Positions 123-7,253 of a stretch of DNA of 7,424 nucleotides are shown piece by piece (within the stretch, counting starts at the first letter, position 1; each line of letters begins with the position of its first letter). The stretch is from Phycisphaerae bacterium (GTDB lineage Bacteria > Planctomycetota > Phycisphaerae > Sedimentisphaerales > SG8-4). The DNA lies in NCBI GenBank assembly GCA_030613765.1, contig JAUWLI010000141.1:1-7424 (forward strand), given 5' to 3'. Under the pieces are notes generated by a model. The model made no database searches. It worked only from the letters and a program-made list of their open reading frames with translations, and was not told where the DNA came from. Position numbers and translations under genes: made by a program.

Positions 123-1319
123 ATGGCAAAGGATATGGAGCAATTGTATGCTGAGCGGTTGAAGCGCTACGTTACGGCGATGCGGAATGGGAAACCGGAC
201 AAGATTCCGATTCGCCCTTTTATGGCGGAATTTACGGCCAAATACGCCGGGTACACATGTCAGCAGGTAACACACGATTATGAGATGGCGTTTGCCGCCG
301 CCCGCAAGTGCGCGGCTGATTTCGACTGGGACGCCATCGTCCCGAATATGGTCTACGTGTGGACGGGGCTGACACAGGCAATCGGGATGAAGTACTACGG
401 GGTTCCCGGAATCGATGTGGCGCCGGACTTTGGCTTTCAGTACAGGGAACCGTCCGAAGAGGATGCATTTATGAAGCCGGACGAGTACGATGCGCTTATC
501 GAGGACCCGACGGGTTTTTTATTCAACGTCTGGCTTCCACGTGTCTCCGCCGATGTTAGTGCGAAGGGAGAGGCGACATCCTTTCGGAACAACCTGTCGT
601 TTTTGAAAGGTGGGATGGCGATGCTGAGTTATTTCAACGCATTTGGAACACAGATTGCGCGAATGAGGACGGAGTCGGGAACGGTCTCGGCCATCTCAGG
701 TATTCTAAAGGCACCGTTCGATATCATTGCGGACAAGCTTCGTGGGTACCTTGGTCTTGTCAGTGACGTGCTCGAACGGCCGGATAAAGTTCTCGCGGCC
801 TGCGAGGCGTTGATGCCGCATTTAACGCATGTGGCACTTTCAGGTGCAGACCCGGACAAGAATGTGCCGATTGGCCTCTGGATGCATCGTGGGTGTGTTC
901 CCTTCTTTTCAATGGAGCATTTCGAGAAGTTTTACTGGCCGACATTTAAGCCGATTGTAGAGGAAATCTGGAAAAACGGGCACCAGGTCCTGTTCTATGC
1001 CGAGGGCAGTTGGGACGCCCATTTGGATTCATTCGCGGAGCTGCCCGACCAGGCGATTGTTTATCATGTCGATATGGGTGACATATTCGAAGTGCACAAG
1101 AAGATTGGGCATAAGTTCTGCATCAGCGGCGGTATCCCGAACTATCTGCTTTCAATGGGTACACCGGATGAGGTGCGCGATTGCTGTAAGAAGGTGATCG
1201 ACGGCGTGGCCGGCGACGGTGGTTATATAATGGACGCCAGCGCTATCGTTCAAAACGATGCGAAGGTTGAAAATATCAAAGCGATGACAGATTTTACACG
1301 TGAATATGGAGTATATTAA
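123..1319 (+). CDS. URO-D superfamily protein (degenerate uroporphyrinogen decarboxylase / corrinoid methyltransferase-like)
   Basis: This is a 398-residue cytoplasmic protein with no signal peptide. It fits the URO-D fold (PF01208), which covers HemE and the methylcobalamin-dependent methyltransferases of the MtaA/MtbA/CmuA type. The match is clearest in the C-terminal half: YWPTFKPIVEEI (271-282), CISGGIPNYLL (333-343, the Gn-dP region), a GTPDEVRDC helix (346-354) and GGYIM...ENIKAM (366-388). It is unlikely to be true HemE, because the N-terminal RQAGR signature is absent; the region reads IPIRPFMAEFTAKYAG (28-43). By my alignment by eye, the methyltransferase zinc ligands are also missing. 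The HxCG site reads FYAEG (291-295), and the late Cys is Ser/Ala in MDASAI (370-375). Paralogues of this kind are common beside sugar-catabolic oxidoreductases in Planctomycetes, but I cannot name the reaction. It is first in the operon, and its stop overlaps the next start (TAATG). Confidence 0.85.
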   Translation: MAKDMEQLYAERLKRYVTAMRNGKPDKIPIRPFMAEFTAKYAGYTCQQVTHDYEMAFAAARKCAADFDWDAIVPNMVYVWTGLTQAIGMKYYGVPGIDVAPDFGFQYREPSEEDAFMKPDEYDALIEDPTGFLFNVWLPRVSADVSAKGEATSFRNNLSFLKGGMAMLSYFNAFGTQIARMRTESGTVSAISGILKAPFDIIADKLRGYLGLVSDVLERPDKVLAACEALMPHLTHVALSGADPDKNVPIGLWMHRGCVPFFSMEHFEKFYWPTFKPIVEEIWKNGHQVLFYAEGSWDAHLDSFAELPDQAIVYHVDMGDIFEVHKKIGHKFCISGGIPNYLLSMGTPDEVRDCCKKVIDGVAGDGGYIMDASAIVQNDAKVENIKAMTDFTREYGVY

Positions 1320-1489
1320 TGGCTGAAGCAAAGAGACCAGAGAGAAAGCCGGGTGTTTGTGTTCCCTGGGAAGAGAAGGTAAAGGAACTGAAGGAAATAA
1401 AGGCCGATAAAGAGCTTGTGCAGAAGGTGTGGGAAGATATTGACGGATTAGGGTATGTGTATATCTGGCAGTGTCTGCTCTCATTTTAA
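1319..1489 (+). CDS. Small ORF, 56 residues, translationally coupled to the URO-D-like gene
   Basis: The ATG at 1319 shares its A with the last base of the upstream TAA (TAATG), the usual arrangement for termination-reinitiation coupling. The frame runs 56 codons to TAA at 1487-1489, starting MAEAKRPERKPGVCVPWEEK and ending GYVYIWQCLLSF. The middle (about residues 17-43) is highly charged and could form an amphipathic helix; the end is hydrophobic and aromatic. It fills most of the 199-base gap between the two neighbours and ends 29 bases before the oxidoreductase ATG. I do not recognise a family. It could be a genuine small partner of the URO-D-like protein. It could also be the N-terminal remnant of a longer gene truncated by deletion or frameshift. 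Coupling and length favour translation; function is unknown. Confidence 0.5.
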   Translation: MAEAKRPERKPGVCVPWEEKVKELKEIKADKELVQKVWEDIDGLGYVYIWQCLLSF

Positions 1490-1518: not shown

Positions 1519-2823
1519 ATGAATGGAAGAGCGGTTATCACGCGCCGGAGATTTATGAAACGAGCTGCCGGTATTACAGCCGGGGCGCTGGCATTTCCAT
1601 ACATTGCTGCCTCATCGGCTTTGGGTAAGGCGGGGAGTGTTGCAGCGAGCAACCGTATTACACTGGGTTTCATCGGAGTTGGCAGCCACGGAATTGGGAT
1701 GAATCTGAGGACGTTCCTTGGTAACGATGACGCTCAAGCTGTCGCCGTTTGCGATGTCGATATCAATAATCTTAAAAAGGGTCGTGATATAGTAAACCAA
1801 AAGTACGGGAATCAGGATTGTGCTACTTACAGGGATTGGCGGGAGGTTATCGCGCGGGATGATATCGATGCAGTGATGGTATCGACGCCGGACCACTGGC
1901 ATGTGCCGATATCGCTGGCGGCCCTGCGGGCGGGCAAGGACGTCGAGTGTGAGAAGCCAACGCTGACGGTGCGCGAGGGGCGGATCTTAGTCGAGACGGT
2001 AGAGCGCTACGGGCGCGTGTTTCAATGGTCCACGGAGGACCGGTCGGTTTACGAGTATCACCGGATGTGCGAGCTGGTTCGCAACGGGCGGATAGGCAAG
2101 GTGCATACGATTCGGGTGGAGCTGCCGAGCGGGCCGGGCAATCCGGGTAACGCCAAGCCGATGCCGGTGCCGGAGAGCCTGGACTATGATATGTGGCTTG
2201 GGCCGGCGCCCCTGAGGCCTTATACGGGATGGGACCAGCTCCCTTATCAGTGGCGGTGGGTAATGGATTACTCGGGCGGACAATTGACCGACTGGGGGGC
2301 GCACCTGTTGGACGGGGCTCAGTGGGGCAACGACAGCGAATACACCGGACCCGTAGATGTCGAGGGCAAGGGTGTGTTCTGTACTGGAGGCCTTTACGAT
2401 ACGGCGAAAGAATACAGAATCGAGTATGAATATGCCAGCGGTGTTAAGCTGATAGTTACGTCGGGTACACCGAGCCTTAGATTCGAGGGCAGTGATGGGT
2501 GGATCGGCAACGTCGGCTGGCGATCGCCACTGCAGGCCGAGCCGAAGTCGATACTGGATTCGAAGATCGGCCCGGATGAGGTTCATCTTTATACGTGCAA
2601 AGCGGGCGAGCAACGTAATTTCCTCGATTGTGTGAAATCGCGGAAAGATTGCTATTTTCCGCCGGAGATTGGCCAGCGATGCTTTACAATCGCTCATATC
2701 GGGAATATTTCGATGCTTTTGGACAGGAAACTTCGATGGAACCCGGAGAAAGAGCAATTCATCAATGATGAGCAGGCGAATAGAATGCTGTCACGGTCGA
2801 TGCGGAGCCCGTGGCACTTATGA
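1519..2823 (+). CDS. Tat-exported Gfo/Idh/MocA family NAD(P)-dependent oxidoreductase
   Basis: A 434-residue protein starting at the ATG with a good Shine-Dalgarno. The N-terminus carries a textbook twin-arginine motif, TRRRFMK (8-14), then a hydrophobic stretch (about 16-31) and a likely cleavage zone around residues 32-42. The mature protein begins with a Rossmann fold: TLGFIGVGSHGIG (48-60, the GxGxxG nucleotide site) and VAVCDVD (75-81). The family EKP motif is at 145-147 (CEKPTL), with Lys146 the conserved active-site lysine. The GGQLTDWGAHLLD segment (253-265) supplies His262 and Asp265, the usual C-terminal catalytic residues. Members oxidise or reduce sugar hydroxyls; enzymes next to DUF1080 proteins have been linked to 3-keto-sugar formation. 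Tat export would carry the enzyme folded with its cofactor, as in glucose-fructose oxidoreductase. Substrate unknown. It is followed after 39 bases by the secreted DUF1080/TIM-barrel gene. Confidence 0.93.
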   Translation: MNGRAVITRRRFMKRAAGITAGALAFPYIAASSALGKAGSVAASNRITLGFIGVGSHGIGMNLRTFLGNDDAQAVAVCDVDINNLKKGRDIVNQKYGNQDCATYRDWREVIARDDIDAVMVSTPDHWHVPISLAALRAGKDVECEKPTLTVREGRILVETVERYGRVFQWSTEDRSVYEYHRMCELVRNGRIGKVHTIRVELPSGPGNPGNAKPMPVPESLDYDMWLGPAPLRPYTGWDQLPYQWRWVMDYSGGQLTDWGAHLLDGAQWGNDSEYTGPVDVEGKGVFCTGGLYDTAKEYRIEYEYASGVKLIVTSGTPSLRFEGSDGWIGNVGWRSPLQAEPKSILDSKIGPDEVHLYTCKAGEQRNFLDCVKSRKDCYFPPEIGQRCFTIAHIGNISMLLDRKLRWNPEKEQFINDEQANRMLSRSMRSPWHL

Positions 2824-2844
2824 AATGATTAATGATAAATGATT
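2824..2844 (+). repeat. Three tandem heptamers AATGATW in the intergenic gap
   Basis: AATGATT (2824-2830), AATGATA (2831-2837) and AATGATT (2838-2844) stand head to tail directly after the oxidoreductase stop. The repeat scatters ATG codons, including a five-codon frame at 2825-2842 and the in-frame ATG at 2839, ahead of the likely true start at 2863. It may be a slippage product or may affect reinitiation; neither can be settled from sequence. Confidence 0.6.
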
Positions 2845-2851
2845 ATTGGAA

Positions 2852-2858
2852 AAGGAAG
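2852..2858 (+). promoter_or_regulatory. Ribosome binding site deciding the DUF1080/TIM-barrel start
   Basis: AAGGAAG at 2852-2858 puts the AAGGA core six bases before the ATG at 2863. The earlier in-frame ATG at 2839 has no comparable site and would place eight extra residues before the signal peptide. I therefore call 2863. Confidence 0.65.
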
Positions 2859-2862
2859 AATT

Positions 2863-4386
2863 ATGAAAGTTCGAGGCAAAGAGATTTGGGTGATTGTGCT
2901 ATTTAGCGGGATTTGCTGTTTACTTTCGGCGGGAATAGCCTGTGCCAAGGTTTCCTTAGTAGGTGATGATTTTTCCACATGGCGGGGTAATACCGGACAA
3001 TGGGAAATTGTCGGAGATACCTTTACAAATCCGAAGAACGTGAAGTCGCTAAGCAGCAAGACGGGAAGTGGGGTCATTTTGAATGGGCCTACCGGAAGGA
3101 CAAGGAACATAATAAGCAAGCCGGAATTCGGTGACGTCAGGGCCCATATCGAGTTTATGGTTCCCAAAGGGTCTAACTCCGGGGTGTATTTTATGGGCCG
3201 ATATGAAATTCAGGTCTACGACAGCTACGGTGTGGAAAAAGACAAATACCCAGGCATTGAGTGCGGCGGTATTTATGAGCGGTGGGATAATAACAGAAAC
3301 AAGGGCTTCGAAGGCCATTCCCCGCGCGTCAACGCTTCGCGAGCACCGGGACATTGGCAAACGTATGACGTGATATTCCGGGCGCCGCGTTTTGACAAGG
3401 ATGGGCGGAAAATCGCCAACGCCAGATTTGAAAAGGTTGTACACAACGGCATTGTTGTACACGCAGACCTGGAGCTTACCGGGCCGACGCGGGCCAGCAC
3501 GTATAACGACGAGAAGCCAACCGGGCCTCTGATGCTGCAAGGCGACCACGGGCCTGTGGCATATCGTAATATATGGTTCGAGCCGGCTGGGGTGCTGCCG
3601 TTCTTCGCGATGGATACGGGAACGAAAGACGCCAAACACAAGACGGCAAAACAGCAAGTAGAGATGATAAAAGAATTAGGATATGACGGCATCGGCTGTA
3701 CAGCGGGGCCGGGATTGGCGGAGATGCTCAAAGAGCTGGATAAAAATGGCTTGAGGCTTTTTGCTGTTTATCTTGGAGCAAATATAGATGCGGACCAGCA
3801 AAAGTATGGGCCGGAATTAAAAGAAGCAATCGAAGTTTTGAAGGGACGCAATGCGGTACTCTGGCTGTTCGTTCTAAGCAAAAAGCATAAGCCTTCTTCG
3901 CCGGAAGGCGATGGGCGTGCGGTGGAAGTCATACGCGAGATTGCCGACATGGCGGGTGAGGCCAAACTGCGAGTCTCGCTGTACCCGCACCAGAGATTCT
4001 GGGTCGAGCGAGTGGAAGATGCGGTTCGAGTGGCCAAGAAGGTAGACCGGAAAAACGTCGGTGTTACTTTCAACCTATGCCACTGGCTAATGGTTGATGA
4101 TGAGAAAAATATGGAACCACTGATAAAATCGGCGATGCCATACCTGTCTCTGGTGAGTATCAACGGTGCGGACAGCGGTGGTAAAAACTGGAAGCAGCTC
4201 ATACAGACACTTGACCGAGGTACTTTCGATATGTACAGTTTTTTAAAGGCACTGGAAGACGCAGGCTACAACGGCCCGATAGGATTTCAGGGATATGGTA
4301 TAGGCGGCGATGCACATGATAACCTGAAACGTTCGATGAGCACATGGCGTCAACTTGCAAAACGGTTAGCGGCAGATAAAAATTAA
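2863..4386 (+). CDS. Secreted fusion: DUF1080 (3-keto-disaccharide hydrolase) domain plus xylose-isomerase-like TIM barrel
   Basis: A 507-residue protein. Residues 1-28 form a Sec signal peptide: basic start, hydrophobic core 9-25, probable cleavage after ACA at 26-28. The Cys at 27 lacks a good lipobox. Residues about 30-240 match the DUF1080/PF06439 concanavalin-like domain, with the hallmarks SNSGVYFMGRYEIQVYDSYG (104-123), ECGGIY (133-138) and GPLMLQGDHGPVAYRNIWF (221-239). Characterised members hydrolyse 3-keto-glycosides. Residues about 245-500 resemble the xylose isomerase-like TIM barrel (PF01261), with LYPH (373-376), VTFNLCHWL (401-409) and GPIGFQGYGIGG (471-482). In canonical members the first and last of these strands carry Glu metal ligands; here they read Tyr and Gln, so metal binding may be altered or lost. 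Together with the Tat-exported oxidoreductase just upstream, this suggests extracytoplasmic 3-keto-sugar processing. Domain calls are firm; the reaction is inferred. Confidence 0.9.
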   Translation: MKVRGKEIWVIVLFSGICCLLSAGIACAKVSLVGDDFSTWRGNTGQWEIVGDTFTNPKNVKSLSSKTGSGVILNGPTGRTRNIISKPEFGDVRAHIEFMVPKGSNSGVYFMGRYEIQVYDSYGVEKDKYPGIECGGIYERWDNNRNKGFEGHSPRVNASRAPGHWQTYDVIFRAPRFDKDGRKIANARFEKVVHNGIVVHADLELTGPTRASTYNDEKPTGPLMLQGDHGPVAYRNIWFEPAGVLPFFAMDTGTKDAKHKTAKQQVEMIKELGYDGIGCTAGPGLAEMLKELDKNGLRLFAVYLGANIDADQQKYGPELKEAIEVLKGRNAVLWLFVLSKKHKPSSPEGDGRAVEVIREIADMAGEAKLRVSLYPHQRFWVERVEDAVRVAKKVDRKNVGVTFNLCHWLMVDDEKNMEPLIKSAMPYLSLVSINGADSGGKNWKQLIQTLDRGTFDMYSFLKALEDAGYNGPIGFQGYGIGGDAHDNLKRSMSTWRQLAKRLAADKN

Positions 4387-4414: not shown

Positions 4415-4717
4415 ATGGAAACTCTTAAATTACTACGCGATTACTTTCCGATGGCGGTGTTTACCGGCAAGTGCCTGGTCTTTATCAGCGAAGACTGGCG
4501 TGTTGAACTCGGCGAGCATAAAGACAGTGACTTTAGCAAGGCTGATGCTGAGCCGGTTGTTATACGAGTCAGAATCTTTAAGAAGGCCCTGAATGGACAA
4601 TTTGTGGCGGGCCATTACGAAGATTTCCAGCTCGAATTGCTGGGAGAGCTTGCCGAGCAAATTGAAAAGTACGTGCAGCTGGCACTCGGCACGAATATCA
4701 GGGAAAATATCGAGTGA
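4415..4717 (+). CDS. Hypothetical protein, 100 residues
   Basis: I do not recognise this family. The protein is soluble and acidic, without signal peptide or membrane segment. It appears to alternate strand-like stretches (MAVFTGKCLVFI at 13-24, EPVVIRVRIFK at 46-56) with a C-terminal helix (about 73-90, LELLGELAEQIEKYVQLA), suggesting a small alpha/beta domain. It starts 28 bases after the preceding stop in an AT-rich gap. There is only a weak purine stretch (CAGAG, 4405-4409) before the ATG, so translation may depend on coupling or be modest. An antisense ORF of similar length covers it, but the sense frame is better supported because it fits the same-strand gene run. The next gene, a YggU homologue, begins 50 bases downstream. 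Confidence 0.7.
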   Translation: METLKLLRDYFPMAVFTGKCLVFISEDWRVELGEHKDSDFSKADAEPVVIRVRIFKKALNGQFVAGHYEDFQLELLGELAEQIEKYVQLALGTNIRENIE

Positions 4718-4767: not shown

Positions 4768-5082
4768 ATGAGTAATTTTGCGATTGAAGAGATTGATGGC
4801 GGTGTTGTTTTTGCCGTAAAAGCTGTGCCGGGCAGCAGCAGGACGGCAGTCTGTGGCTTGCTTGATGAGATGGTGAAGATCAAGGTTTCCGCGGCACCTG
4901 AGAAGGGAAAAGCAAATAAGTGTCTGCTTGATTTTCTGTCGAAACGACTTGGTGTAAAAAAGAATGCAGTTAAGATAGTATCCGGCAACAGCAATCCCAT
5001 CAAGGGCGTGCAAGTATTGGGAATCTCTGCCGAGCAACTATTAAACAAACTGAATTTGAATAAACAAAGTGTGGGTCAATGA
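4768..5082 (+). CDS. yggU: DUF167 / YggU (UPF0235) family protein
   Basis: A 104-residue protein, about the normal length for this widespread family (PF02594). The signature blocks appear in order: VPGSSRTAVCG (20-30), KIKVSAAPEKGKAN (37-50), the CLLDFLSKRLGV helix (52-63), and IVSGNSNPIKGVQVLG (70-85). The fold is a small alpha/beta domain of unknown biochemical role, found in the cytoplasm. The start is fixed by an in-frame stop just upstream (4762-4764). There is no Shine-Dalgarno, and a -10-like box ends seven bases before the ATG. The last four bases (ATGA) overlap the start of the MATE transporter gene, so the two are probably cotranscribed and translationally coupled. The 19 residues after the core are Asn/Lys/Leu-rich and probably flexible. 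The name follows the E. coli family member; orthology is by motif only. Confidence 0.88.
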   Translation: MSNFAIEEIDGGVVFAVKAVPGSSRTAVCGLLDEMVKIKVSAAPEKGKANKCLLDFLSKRLGVKKNAVKIVSGNSNPIKGVQVLGISAEQLLNKLNLNKQSVGQ

Positions 5083-6506
5083 GTGACAAATCATCTCTGC
5101 TTCCACATGACCAAATAGTGGACGAGTCTTCACTAAGATATATGCTGAAGTTAGCGGCACCAATGGTAGTGACGACCATATCGTTCACCATTATGCAGTT
5201 TGTGGATAGATACATGGTATCCCGGCTTGGGACGGAGGCGCTGGCGGCGATTTTGCCGGCGGGATTTGCCAGTTTTCTGCCCAGCGGTTTCGCGATTGGC
5301 GCGATGGTGAGCCTGAGCACGTTTGTGAGCCAGAGTCTTGGCAGAGGCGATAAGAGGAGCTGCTCGAATTATTTCTGGCAGACAATATACATGGGGTTAG
5401 CGTACTTTCTGTTAATGGTAACAATTATGTGGCCGGCTGCACCGTGGATATTTAAGTTGATGGGACAACCGGAAGCGGTGGCTGAGATGGAAGTGGTATA
5501 TTTTCGAATCATACTTTACGCCCATGTTCTGGCCGTCATCAACTGGTCAGCCAACCAGTTTTTTATGGGTATACATCGGCCAACTATCACAATGTTTGCA
5601 TCGTTATGTGGACAAGTGGTCAACGTAGCGGCTAATTATATATTGATTTTCGGCAAGCTGGGTTTTGCACCTATGGGCATTGCAGGCGCAGGCTGGGGGA
5701 CATTTATCGGGATAACCGTCGCGGCTGTTATAAATATGGCGGTGTTTTTGAGCAGCGGTATGAATACTACTTTCAGGACCCGGCGAGCGGTGCACCTGGA
5801 CTTCAATAAGATGTATGATTTGCTGAAAGTGGGGCTTCCTGCCGGATTTGGTCTGATGATGAATGTGGCAATCTGGGGTATGATTCTGTTTGCACTCGTT
5901 GGAAGATTCGGCACGGAGTCATTAGCAGCGACAAGTGCGGCGCTTTCGTACACAAGCCTGTCGGTGATGCCTGTTGTGGGGATAGGTACTGCTTTAGCTG
6001 CAGCAGTAGGTAAGACAATAGGTGCGGGCAAGAAAGAGCTGGCAGCCAGGCAAACCAGTGTTTGTTTGAAGGTGGCGCTGGTTTATATGGGATTAGTGGG
6101 GATTTGTTTCTATTTTTTCAGACATGCTTTGATGGCGTTTTGGTCTTCCGACGAAGAAGTCATCAAGGTTGGCGCTAATATTTTGATTTGTGCCGCCATA
6201 TACCAGGTGTTTCACGCAGCACGAATAATTTACGGCGGGTCTTTGCGCGGAGCTGGTGATACGCTATGGCTGGCGATTGTCTCGGCGCTTGGGGCAGTGG
6301 TAATATTGTGGTTGGGTGGTTTAGTTGTAGTTACGCTTTTTGGCCAGCTCGAGGCATTGGGGCCCTGGATAGTCGCTACAATCAGCATTATCGTCGTAGG
6401 GTTGGCGAACTACTGGCGATTCAAGAGCAACAGGTGGATGAAGATAGATTTGTTCAAGCATCGTGCAGTGGGCGTACCGGTCGAGACCGAAGCAGTGGTC
6501 GAGTAG
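5079..6506 (+). CDS. MATE family efflux transporter (multidrug/Na+ or H+ antiporter)
   Basis: A 475-residue inner-membrane protein of the MatE family (PF01554), the usual length for a complete transporter. About twelve hydrophobic segments are visible in two related halves (roughly residues 20-225 and 245-450), joined by a basic cytoplasmic loop at 231-248. Family features include FVDRYMVSRLGTEALAA (41-57), matching the conserved Asp-containing first helix and loop (Asp43); the second-half equivalent VGRFGTESLAA (274-284); AVGKTIGAGKK (309-319); and GSLRGAGDT (387-395). MATE proteins export cationic drugs, dyes or metabolites in exchange for Na+ or H+. The substrate cannot be told from sequence. 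The N-terminal Asp/Glu-containing tail (1-18) is cytoplasmic. It begins inside the stop of the yggU-type gene (ATGA) and ends 36 bases from the stop of the convergent lipoprotein gene, with no clear terminator between them. Confidence 0.95.
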   Translation: MSDKSSLLPHDQIVDESSLRYMLKLAAPMVVTTISFTIMQFVDRYMVSRLGTEALAAILPAGFASFLPSGFAIGAMVSLSTFVSQSLGRGDKRSCSNYFWQTIYMGLAYFLLMVTIMWPAAPWIFKLMGQPEAVAEMEVVYFRIILYAHVLAVINWSANQFFMGIHRPTITMFASLCGQVVNVAANYILIFGKLGFAPMGIAGAGWGTFIGITVAAVINMAVFLSSGMNTTFRTRRAVHLDFNKMYDLLKVGLPAGFGLMMNVAIWGMILFALVGRFGTESLAATSAALSYTSLSVMPVVGIGTALAAAVGKTIGAGKKELAARQTSVCLKVALVYMGLVGICFYFFRHALMAFWSSDEEVIKVGANILICAAIYQVFHAARIIYGGSLRGAGDTLWLAIVSALGAVVILWLGGLVVVTLFGQLEALGPWIVATISIIVVGLANYWRFKSNRWMKIDLFKHRAVGVPVETEAVVE

Positions 6507-6542: not shown

Positions 6543-7253
6543 TCAGAGAATGCTACTTAGGTCCGTGAGCGTTTTTAATCGGATGTTTCGAACAGCTCCG
6601 GCCGTTTGCCAGGTTGCAATTCCAAGGGGCTTAGATAAGTCCACTTCCGGGCGGATGTCGATTTTTCGGTCGGTCGTCACTACATCTACAAGTTTTTCAT
6701 CGTCGAGCCATGCTTCAATCTTGTCGGGGGTGACGCGCAACCGGACGTGGTACCACCGGCCGGTCTCAAAAGCGACGATTCGCGTGGTTTCGTTGTTGGC
6801 GGCGTCATAATAATCGAGATTTGAGAGGCCGCAGACCTCGCCGCCCCAGCCTCCGAGTATTAGTGAGCAGGGATTTTCACCGACGGGAAAGGTCAGACCA
6901 CAGAAAAAGTCACTGCCGGTGACTCGCTTTGCTTCGAGGCTGATTTCATAGTTCATGCGAACGACCGGGCCGGTCCAGTTTATGCCGGTCATATCGTTAC
7001 CCATTTCAAGATAGATAGCATTCTCTTTTACATAGACATTGCCCTGACCGCCGAAGTCGGTAATCGCCCACTGGCCCATTGTCTTGCCGTCGAAAAGGCT
7101 GATTTCTGATGGTCCTTGATCGGATAGCCCCTGATCGGACGGGCCCTGACATGAGGGAAGCACTAAAAGGCCAAGCAGTAGAAATATTGCATATGGCGTA
7201 TTAGGTAATTGGTGATGAGATAATCTTTCAATATTGTTACGTTTTCGACTCAT
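6543..7253 (-). CDS. Lipoprotein with DUF1080/LamG-like beta-sandwich domain
   Basis: A 236-residue protein on the minus strand. A long n-region (1-20) precedes a hydrophobic core, YAIFLLLGLLVL (21-32), and a lipobox-like LPSC with the lipidated Cys at 35, so it is expected to be anchored in the envelope. A repeated Gly-Pro/Leu-Ser-Asp-Gln linker (36-50) follows. From about residue 51 a domain resembling 3keto-disac_hyd/DUF1080 or concanavalin-like folds begins: ISLFDGKTMGQWAI (51-64), the paired strands FFCGLTFPVGENPCSLILGG (116-135), GRWYHVRLRV (165-174), KIEAWLDDEKLVD (178-190) and VRNIRLK (221-227). It lacks the GVYF-EIQV signature of the DUF1080 domain at 2863-4386, so it belongs to a distant subgroup that may bind glycans or act as a hydrolase. 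It is convergent with the MATE gene and probably transcribed alone. The start is supported by AGGAG seven bases upstream. Confidence 0.88.
   Translation of the reverse strand: MSRKRNNIERLSHHQLPNTPYAIFLLLGLLVLPSCQGPSDQGLSDQGPSEISLFDGKTMGQWAITDFGGQGNVYVKENAIYLEMGNDMTGINWTGPVVRMNYEISLEAKRVTGSDFFCGLTFPVGENPCSLILGGWGGEVCGLSNLDYYDAANNETTRIVAFETGRWYHVRLRVTPDKIEAWLDDEKLVDVVTTDRKIDIRPEVDLSKPLGIATWQTAGAVRNIRLKTLTDLSSIL
7104..7148 (-). repeat. Three 15-bp tandem repeats encoding the lipoprotein linker
   Basis: On the + strand the units are ATCGGACGGGCCCTG (7134-7148), ATCGGATAGCCCCTG (7119-7133) and TTCTGATGGTCCTTG (7104-7118). On the minus strand they encode three imperfect five-residue units (QG-P/L-S-D/E), directly after the lipidated Cys. 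The outer two units nearest the N-terminus are most alike. The copy number is probably variable between strains and would set the spacing of the domain from the membrane. Confidence 0.7.

What the first reader, a model, noticed from the sequence alone, without database searches (positions are those of the whole stretch)
1519..4386. Candidate extracytoplasmic 3-keto-glycoside module: Tat oxidoreductase next to a secreted hydrolase/TIM-barrel fusion
Adjacent genes encode a Gfo/Idh/MocA enzyme with a clear Tat signal and a Sec-exported protein joining a DUF1080 domain to a xylose-isomerase-like barrel. Gfo/Idh oxidation at C3 followed by DUF1080 hydrolysis or xylose-isomerase-like lyase action is an established scheme in Bacteroides-type 3-keto-glycoside metabolism and in C-glycoside cleavage. 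Placing all parts outside the cytoplasm by two export routes, with two of them fused, is a distinct arrangement. It raises the question of how the NAD(P) cofactor is regenerated there; tight binding and internal redox cycling, as in glucose-fructose oxidoreductase, is one answer.
Basis: partly seen in the sequence, partly recalled or inferred. Interest (0 to 1): 0.72.

Follow-up and report, generated by a model that had tools for sequence, protein, structure and literature searches.

The report
Exported sugar oxidase and fused partner
A planctomycete exports two neighbouring enzymes that probably work together on oxidised sugars outside the cytoplasm; the general scheme is known from gut Bacteroides, but here two parts are fused and one has lost its usual metal-binding site, which is a new variation.

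Summary
GFO (1519-2823) is a Gfo/Idh/MocA enzyme with a Tat motif (TRRRFMK). FUS (2839-4386; likely start 2863) is a Sec-type secreted protein joining PF06439 (DUF1080, "3-keto-disaccharide hydrolase") to a PF01261 xylose-isomerase-like barrel. The window is Phycisphaerae-like. GFO lies directly upstream of the fusion in 29 of 37 fused loci examined, and next to the barrel in 9 of 13 unfused relatives.

Two points change the reading. First, the two export routes are not distinctive: Bacteroidota loci of the BT_2158 glycoside 3-dehydrogenase family often pair a twin-arginine-type oxidoreductase with a secreted DUF1080 lipoprotein. Second, the fused barrel has lost all four metal ligands of its superfamily (E/D/H/E became Y382/N412/S440/Q484; Y, N and Q in 121 of 121 rows) but keeps a histidine (H384) where Mn-dependent 3-keto-glycoside eliminases have their base. 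Another exported barrel of the same order keeps E/D/H/E (17 of 17 distinct) and in one genome is itself fused to this DUF1080.

Best reading: an extracytoplasmic 3-keto-glycoside pathway with a metal-free barrel step. Chemistry, substrate and localisation are untested. New variant of a known kind.

The parts
1519..2823 (+). GFO: Tat-type Gfo/Idh/MocA oxidoreductase, 434 aa
   Evidence: PF01408, PF19051; best NCBIfam BT_2158_fam, below cut-off; EKP 145-147, D258, H262 invariant in 32 rows
1540..1560 (+). twin-arginine motif TRRRFMK (residues 8-14)
   Evidence: sequence; RRx[FIVYLM] in 112 of 120 homologs; TatC in 9 of 9 related genomes
2839..4386 (+). FUS: secreted DUF1080 + xylose-isomerase-like barrel, 515 aa; likely translation start 2863 (M9)
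   Evidence: (M9 invariant in 51 rows)
2863..2946 (+). Sec-type signal peptide, likely end ...ACA|K (residues 9-36)
   Evidence: read from the sequence and 20 of 120 homolog N-termini; no predictor run
2962..3579 (+). DUF1080 / 3keto-disac_hyd domain (residues 42-247)
   Evidence: E123, Q125, D128 invariant in 121 rows
3592..4383 (+). xylose-isomerase-like TIM barrel (residues 252-515)
3982..3990 (+). Y382-P383-H384 at the end of strand 5: Y replaces the first metal ligand, H at the catalytic-base position
   Evidence: base position by comparison with AtOGE His132/His134
4072..4074 (+). N412 in place of the second ligand (Asp), end of strand 6
4156..4164 (+). S440-I441-N442 in place of the third ligand (His), end of strand 7
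   Evidence: S440 is S 81, T 39, A 1; N442 121 of 121
4288..4290 (+). Q484 in place of the fourth ligand (Glu), end of strand 8
123..1319 (+). URO-D-family protein (no export signal seen by eye), recurrent neighbour of GFO
   Evidence: synteny
1319..1489 (+). conserved 56-aa ORF overlapping the URO-D stop; in-frame end of URO-D in some relatives

Best explanation
An extracytoplasmic 3-keto-glycoside module of Phycisphaerae. GFO folds with NAD in the cytoplasm, is exported by Tat and oxidises C3-OH of a glycoside. The DUF1080 domain of FUS cleaves the 3-keto-glycoside. [quoted passage not shown] GFO or a paralog may then re-reduce the keto sugar, so the bound cofactor is recycled. Shown: gene content, export motifs, conserved adjacency, loss of ligands. 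Inferred: C3 chemistry, order of steps, metal independence, NAD recycling.
For: Domains and best NCBIfam match of GFO. GFO EKP and D258/H262 invariant. Adjacency: 29 of 37 fused loci. Unfused relatives keep the set: GFO beside the barrel in 9 of 13 (L100, L110, L111, L112, L114, L116-L119), with URO-D in L100, L112, L114 and L116; also L056 and L058 in the phylum-wide sample. DUF1080 is fused a second time, in reverse order, to a metal-type exported barrel in L100. Metal-type and metal-less barrels are neighbours in L101 and L102. Metal ligands lost: phmmer against solved epimerases, paralog alignment, 121 of 121 rows, positions at the ends of strands 5-8 in the model; the metal-type barrel keeps E/D/H/E in 27 rows, 17 distinct. 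Literature, passages only: BT2157 (DUF1080) named 3-ketotrehalose hydrolase, and a proposed periplasmic 3'-ketolactose hydrolase (PMC9007349); BT2158 plus BT2156 or BT2157 needed for glucosinolate cleavage in vitro, as a review reports (PMC12385236); AtOGE barrel with base His134 two residues after ligand His132 (PMC10628242).
Against: GFO is only about 32% identical to a BT_2158-family protein and fails that cut-off. FUS's DUF1080 is 19-23% identical to six Bacteroidota ones. In 7 of 37 fused loci with upstream sequence the pair is not adjacent (L075, L120-L123, L125, L126), and 4 of 13 unfused barrel loci lack it (L101, L102, L113, L115). Another characterised DUF1080 protein is an endo-xanthanase/lichenase (PMC9007349). 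Deletion of BT2157 or BT2158 gave no growth defect on raffinose-family sugars (PMC11501099, passages). The recurrent URO-D-family partner has no place in this scheme. The DUF1080 half and GFO were modelled poorly. No activity, metal content or location was measured.
Confidence: 0.5

Rival explanations
1. The barrel domain is a non-catalytic relic or binding/scaffold domain; only DUF1080 and GFO are enzymes, and the barrel holds sugar or GFO.
For: All four metal ligands are gone; DUF1080 proteins without a barrel are credited with 3-keto-glycoside hydrolysis (PMC9007349 passages).
Against: Y382, H384, N412, H415, N442 and Q484 are invariant over 121 rows, and Y, H, N, H over 15 sequences (34-64% identical to the window), among only 23 invariant columns; a binding pocket could also be kept this way. 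The domain also occurs alone beside GFO, with a secretion-type N-terminus in several.
Confidence: 0.25
2. DUF1080 here is a polysaccharide endo-hydrolase or binding domain, and GFO plus barrel handle a free sugar or sugar acid, not a 3-keto-glycoside.
For: An endo-xanthanase/lichenase is a characterised DUF1080 protein (PMC9007349); related clusters carry a heparinase II/III-like protein, glycoside hydrolases and sometimes sulfatases; many top structural neighbours of the barrel are ketose 3-epimerases.
Confidence: 0.2
3. The export signals do not work and the pair is cytoplasmic.
For: The NCBIfam Tat model is just under its cut-off; no predictor or fractionation was run.
Against: Motif in 112 of 120 GFO homologs and TatC in 9 of 9 genomes; stand-alone barrels L100-L102 begin like lipoproteins (read by eye).
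Confidence: 0.05

Closest known systems
Bacteroides thetaiotaomicron BT2156-BT2159 3-keto-glycoside system (glucosinolates, disaccharides)
   Same: Extracytoplasmic Gfo/Idh dehydrogenase (BT2158 periplasmic) with a DUF1080 hydrolase (BT2157) and BT2156; twin-arginine-type GFO near a DUF1080 lipoprotein in several Bacteroidota loci. That BT2156 is a xylose-isomerase-like barrel is recalled, not tested.
   Different: DUF1080 fused to the barrel; barrel without metal ligands (the barrel beside a BT_2158-family gene in L160 keeps an ENH motif and, by eye, Asp and Glu at two other ligand positions); recurrent URO-D partner and 56-aa protein.
Mn-dependent 3-keto-glycoside beta-eliminases (AtOGE, PuCGE) and levoglucosan LgdB1/LgdB2
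   Same: Act after C3 oxidation; AtOGE and PuCGE are TIM barrels, with a histidine at the base position (passages).
   Different: AtOGE and PuCGE need Mn and carry His/Glu, Asp, His, Glu ligands; here Y, N, S, Q.
Caulobacter LacABC + DUF1080 (3'-ketolactose)
   Same: Periplasmic C3 oxidation plus a signal-bearing DUF1080 protein, as proposed in PMC9007349 (passages).
   Different: LacABC is a membrane-bound three-part dehydrogenase; no barrel is mentioned in the passages seen.
Zymomonas glucose-fructose oxidoreductase
   Same: Gfo/Idh/MocA enzyme exported as a folded precursor (export recalled); phmmer E 1.3e-6.
   Different: By eye only some 12-20 residues lie between the likely signal end and the Rossmann strand, so a long GFOR-like arm is not evident; tight NADP binding not tested.

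Membership tests
Gfo/Idh/MocA oxidoreductases | PF01408 Rossmann domain plus C-terminal domain over cut-off | tested here: met
Gfo/Idh/MocA oxidoreductases | EKP lysine and D...H catalytic residues | tested here: met
   E145 K146 P147, D258, H262 invariant in A2, 32 rows; that these are catalytic is recalled family knowledge
BT_2158 glycoside 3-dehydrogenase (NF058561) | score of at least 750 bits | tested here: not met
   141.6 bits
3-keto-disaccharide hydrolase, PF06439 | profile match over cut-off | tested here: met
   108.4 against 26.8 bits
3-keto-disaccharide hydrolase, PF06439 | hydrolysis of a 3-keto-disaccharide | not testable with these tools
   needs an assay
Xylose-isomerase-like barrel, PF01261 | fold and profile match | tested here: met
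Metal-dependent xylose-isomerase-like enzymes / Mn 3-keto-glycoside eliminases | Glu(His)/Asp/His/Glu metal ligands | tested here: not met
   Y382/N412/S440/Q484
Mn 3-keto-glycoside eliminases (AtOGE type) | base histidine two residues after the strand-5 ligand | tested here: inconclusive
   H384 follows Y382 by two, as His134 follows His132; AtOGE itself was not aligned, and in the IolI alignment two residues are inserted here
Tat substrates | S/T-R-R-x-F-x-K motif in a signal peptide and a Tat system in the host | tested here: met
   motif and related genomes; NCBIfam Tat model just below cut-off; no export assay; the window's own genome not held

The most novel reading that the evidence does not exclude
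The fused barrel is a metal-independent 3-keto-sugar enzyme, a new mechanistic branch of the xylose-isomerase-like superfamily that keeps the base histidine but replaces the whole metal site with neutral hydrogen-bonding side chains, and it passes its intermediate to or from DUF1080 within one exported protein, alongside a separate exported metal-type barrel in the same pathway.
Probability: 0.35. Interest if true: 0.68.

Novelty: new variant of a known kind. Interest (0 to 1): 0.47.

Why it matters
It shows what is probably the oxidise-cleave-reduce route for glycosides as a recurrent exported module in a planctomycete order known here mostly from metagenome assemblies, with gene fusions that tie DUF1080 to two different barrels. 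If the barrel is active without metal, it is a natural experiment on how this superfamily does enolate chemistry, testable with two soluble proteins. It also ties a URO-D-family protein of unknown role and a conserved 56-aa protein to the same clusters.

Tried and rejected
AlphaFold2 of GFO (mean pLDDT 44) and of the DUF1080 half of FUS (mostly under 60) were too poor to use; no claim on domain packing or cofactor pocket is made. Own-genome search was impossible. Bacteroidota were searched for the barrel itself: 3 of 198 genomes matched, at 22-27% identity, so this barrel clade is not common there. I could not fetch BT2156 by name, so the comparison used the barrel next to a BT_2158-family gene in L160. 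A 2024 study of this pathway (Withers and colleagues) is recalled; a search for its title words listed only three other papers. No paper describing the DUF1080-barrel fusion appeared in the held open-access library (search listings), which misses most subscription papers. Sulfatase neighbours (L005; L058, L067, L101, L113) were considered as a substrate clue but left as a lead because sulfatases are abundant in these bacteria (recalled).

Full report
What is in the window. Seven ORFs and one small one: a URO-D-family protein (123-1319), GFO (1519-2823), FUS (2839-4386), a 100-aa protein without a Pfam match (4415-4717), a DUF167 protein (4768-5082), a MATE transporter (5079-6506), and on the minus strand a second DUF1080-type lipoprotein (6543-7253). 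The best contig matches to FUS are Phycisphaerae/Planctomycetota MAGs, up to 89% identical. The gene order is kept, as far as the contigs reach, in L001, L002, L003 (with a second GFO), L004, L008, L009 and L011; L005 has genes inserted after FUS, L007 lacks URO-D and GFO at this place, and L006 shows FUS alone.

Export. GFO's N-terminus holds TRRRFMK before a hydrophobic stretch. RRx[FIVYLM] is in 112 of 120 homologs; 7 of the 8 misses are short starts and one reads RG. The NCBIfam Tat model gives 14.6 bits against a cut-off of 16.7. TatC is in 9 of 9 related genomes that carry FUS. In the 28 order-wide loci with GFO next to FUS among L070-L099, the script found an RR motif in 25; the other three GFO frames are cut by contig ends. 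FUS and the 20 of 120 homologs printed begin with a Sec-type signal peptide; M9 (base 2863) is invariant in 51 rows. These are readings of sequence, not export tests.

The pair is real and selected. In the order of the closest genome, 67 of 148 genomes match FUS at E<=1e-30, matches to one domain alone included. Of loci matching both domains I examined 37 (the 30 returned plus 7 of 9 further ones; G493 and G499 were not fetched): GFO lies directly upstream on the same strand in 29; L072 is at a contig edge; L075, L120-L123, L125 and L126 lack it. Nine of these genomes carry 3 to 20 GFO-like matches each at E<=1e-60, too few for this by chance (inference). Unfused relatives keep the association: of 13 stand-alone barrel loci in the order, GFO adjoins the barrel in 9 (L100, L110, L111, L112, L114, L116-L119) and not in L101, L102, L113 and L115; URO-D is in the cluster in L100, L112, L114 and L116. 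In the phylum-wide sample GFO adjoins the barrel in L056 and L058, and weakly in L062, a separate DUF1080 gene follows the barrel in L055, and most of the other barrel loci have no GFO neighbour.

A built-in control. L100 carries a protein with the opposite order: an exported-type barrel with all four ligands, fused to a DUF1080 that is 68% identical to the window's. A match to that metal-type barrel, as a separate gene, was found in 27 of the 39 genomes in which FUS matched over both domains (counted by me; at E<=1e-75 and with at most 10 candidates scored per genome, so a lower bound). It sits beside the metal-less barrel in L101 and L102. Its N-terminus has RR in 15 of 17 distinct sequences (one of the other two is cut short), and E/D/H/E is kept in all 27 rows, 17 distinct. 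So the order has both barrel types, and DUF1080 has been fused to each.

What is already known. DUF1080 proteins were tied to 3-ketotrehalose hydrolysis (BT2157) and proposed for periplasmic 3'-ketolactose in Caulobacter; the same paper names an endo-xanthanase of this family (PMC9007349, passages). BT2158 is called a periplasmic glycoside 3-dehydrogenase (PMC11300592, passages). A review reports that BT2158 with BT2156 or BT2157 converts glucosinolates in vitro (PMC12385236, passages). Another study saw no raffinose-family growth defect in BT2157 or BT2158 deletions (PMC11501099, passages). Of 296 Bacteroidota genomes 15 have BT_2158-family genes over cut-off. Around 14 family matches that I read (12 over the cut-off), the N-terminus has RR in 10, RK in 3 and RQ in 1; of 9 neighbours scanned with Pfam 6 are DUF1080 (L150, L151, L154, L158 and L160 adjacent, L152 one gene away) and 3 have no match (L153, L155, L156); the other 5 loci were not scanned. 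So exported GFO plus exported DUF1080 is not a new arrangement. AtOGE and PuCGE need Mn, and AtOGE's base is two residues after its strand-5 ligand (PMC10628242, passages), the spacing of Y382 and H384. In levoglucosan metabolism two proteins act in turn, elimination then hydration (PMC7676230, passages), which is a model for two barrel types here.

Mechanism. Most likely GFO oxidises C3, DUF1080 cleaves, the barrel handles the keto sugar without metal, and hydride returns by GFO or a paralog. GFO has Asp at the end of its second strand (D79, D81 invariant in 32 rows), which usually favours NAD over NADP (recalled). Heparinase II/III-like and glycoside hydrolase genes upstream in related clusters suggest a polysaccharide-derived oligosaccharide; they lie outside this window. 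None of this chemistry was tested, and the URO-D partner is unexplained.

Verdict. Observation confirmed; interpretation partly supported; ordinary in its two-route export, unusual in the fused, metal-less, strictly conserved barrel.

Noticed in passing
window 1319-1489 (+): A 56-aa ORF overlapping the URO-D stop codon is conserved: tblastn hits in 26 fetched loci, five of them second copies of the same place; pS 0.37-0.87 against pN 0.03-0.16 in 7 comparisons; it is the in-frame C-terminus of the URO-D protein in L127, L132, L134, L135 and L136; no Pfam match. It looks like a partner of the URO-D protein.
   Followed up: partly
window 123-1319 (+): A URO-D-family protein far below the HemE and MtaA/CmuA curated cut-offs recurs beside GFO in fused and unfused clusters; its role is unknown.
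   Followed up: partly
L100:5828-7414 (+): Reverse-order fusion: exported-type barrel with intact E/D/H/E ligands followed by DUF1080.
   Followed up: yes
L105:6543-10316 (+): DUF1080 (63% identical to the window's) fused to ThuA, HEAT and F5/8-C domains, directly after a GFO; L108 and L109 also have DUF1080 in frames of about 1,000 aa or more (their other domains were not scanned).
   Followed up: partly
L065:5394-7607 (-): Metal-less barrel at the N-terminus of a protein whose rest reads like a sulfatase (same protein as in L029, printed; not scanned); Pfam sulfatases also lie near barrels in L005, L058, L067, L101 and L113.
   Followed up: partly
window 6543-7253 (-): Second DUF1080-type lipoprotein, syntenic in relatives. 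In alignment A4 it keeps the conserved Glu and Gln but lacks the Q-x-x-D after the Glu and the D-H-G after the Gln; perhaps binding only.
   Followed up: no
L036, L038-L042, L046: A sister group of barrels, four of them in frames of over 760 aa, with a YNHGG/YNxHH pattern also lacking the four acidic/His ligands.
   Followed up: no
window 4415-4717 (+): 100-aa protein without Pfam match, seen next to FUS in many of the fused loci.
   Followed up: no
L153:7099-7986, L155:6876-7814, L156:4074-4961: Lipoprotein-like neighbours of BT_2158-family genes without any Pfam match at E 0.001, in the place where others have DUF1080.
   Followed up: no
genomes G001-G009: DUF1080 matches number 17 to 42 per genome, a large expansion.
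   Followed up: no
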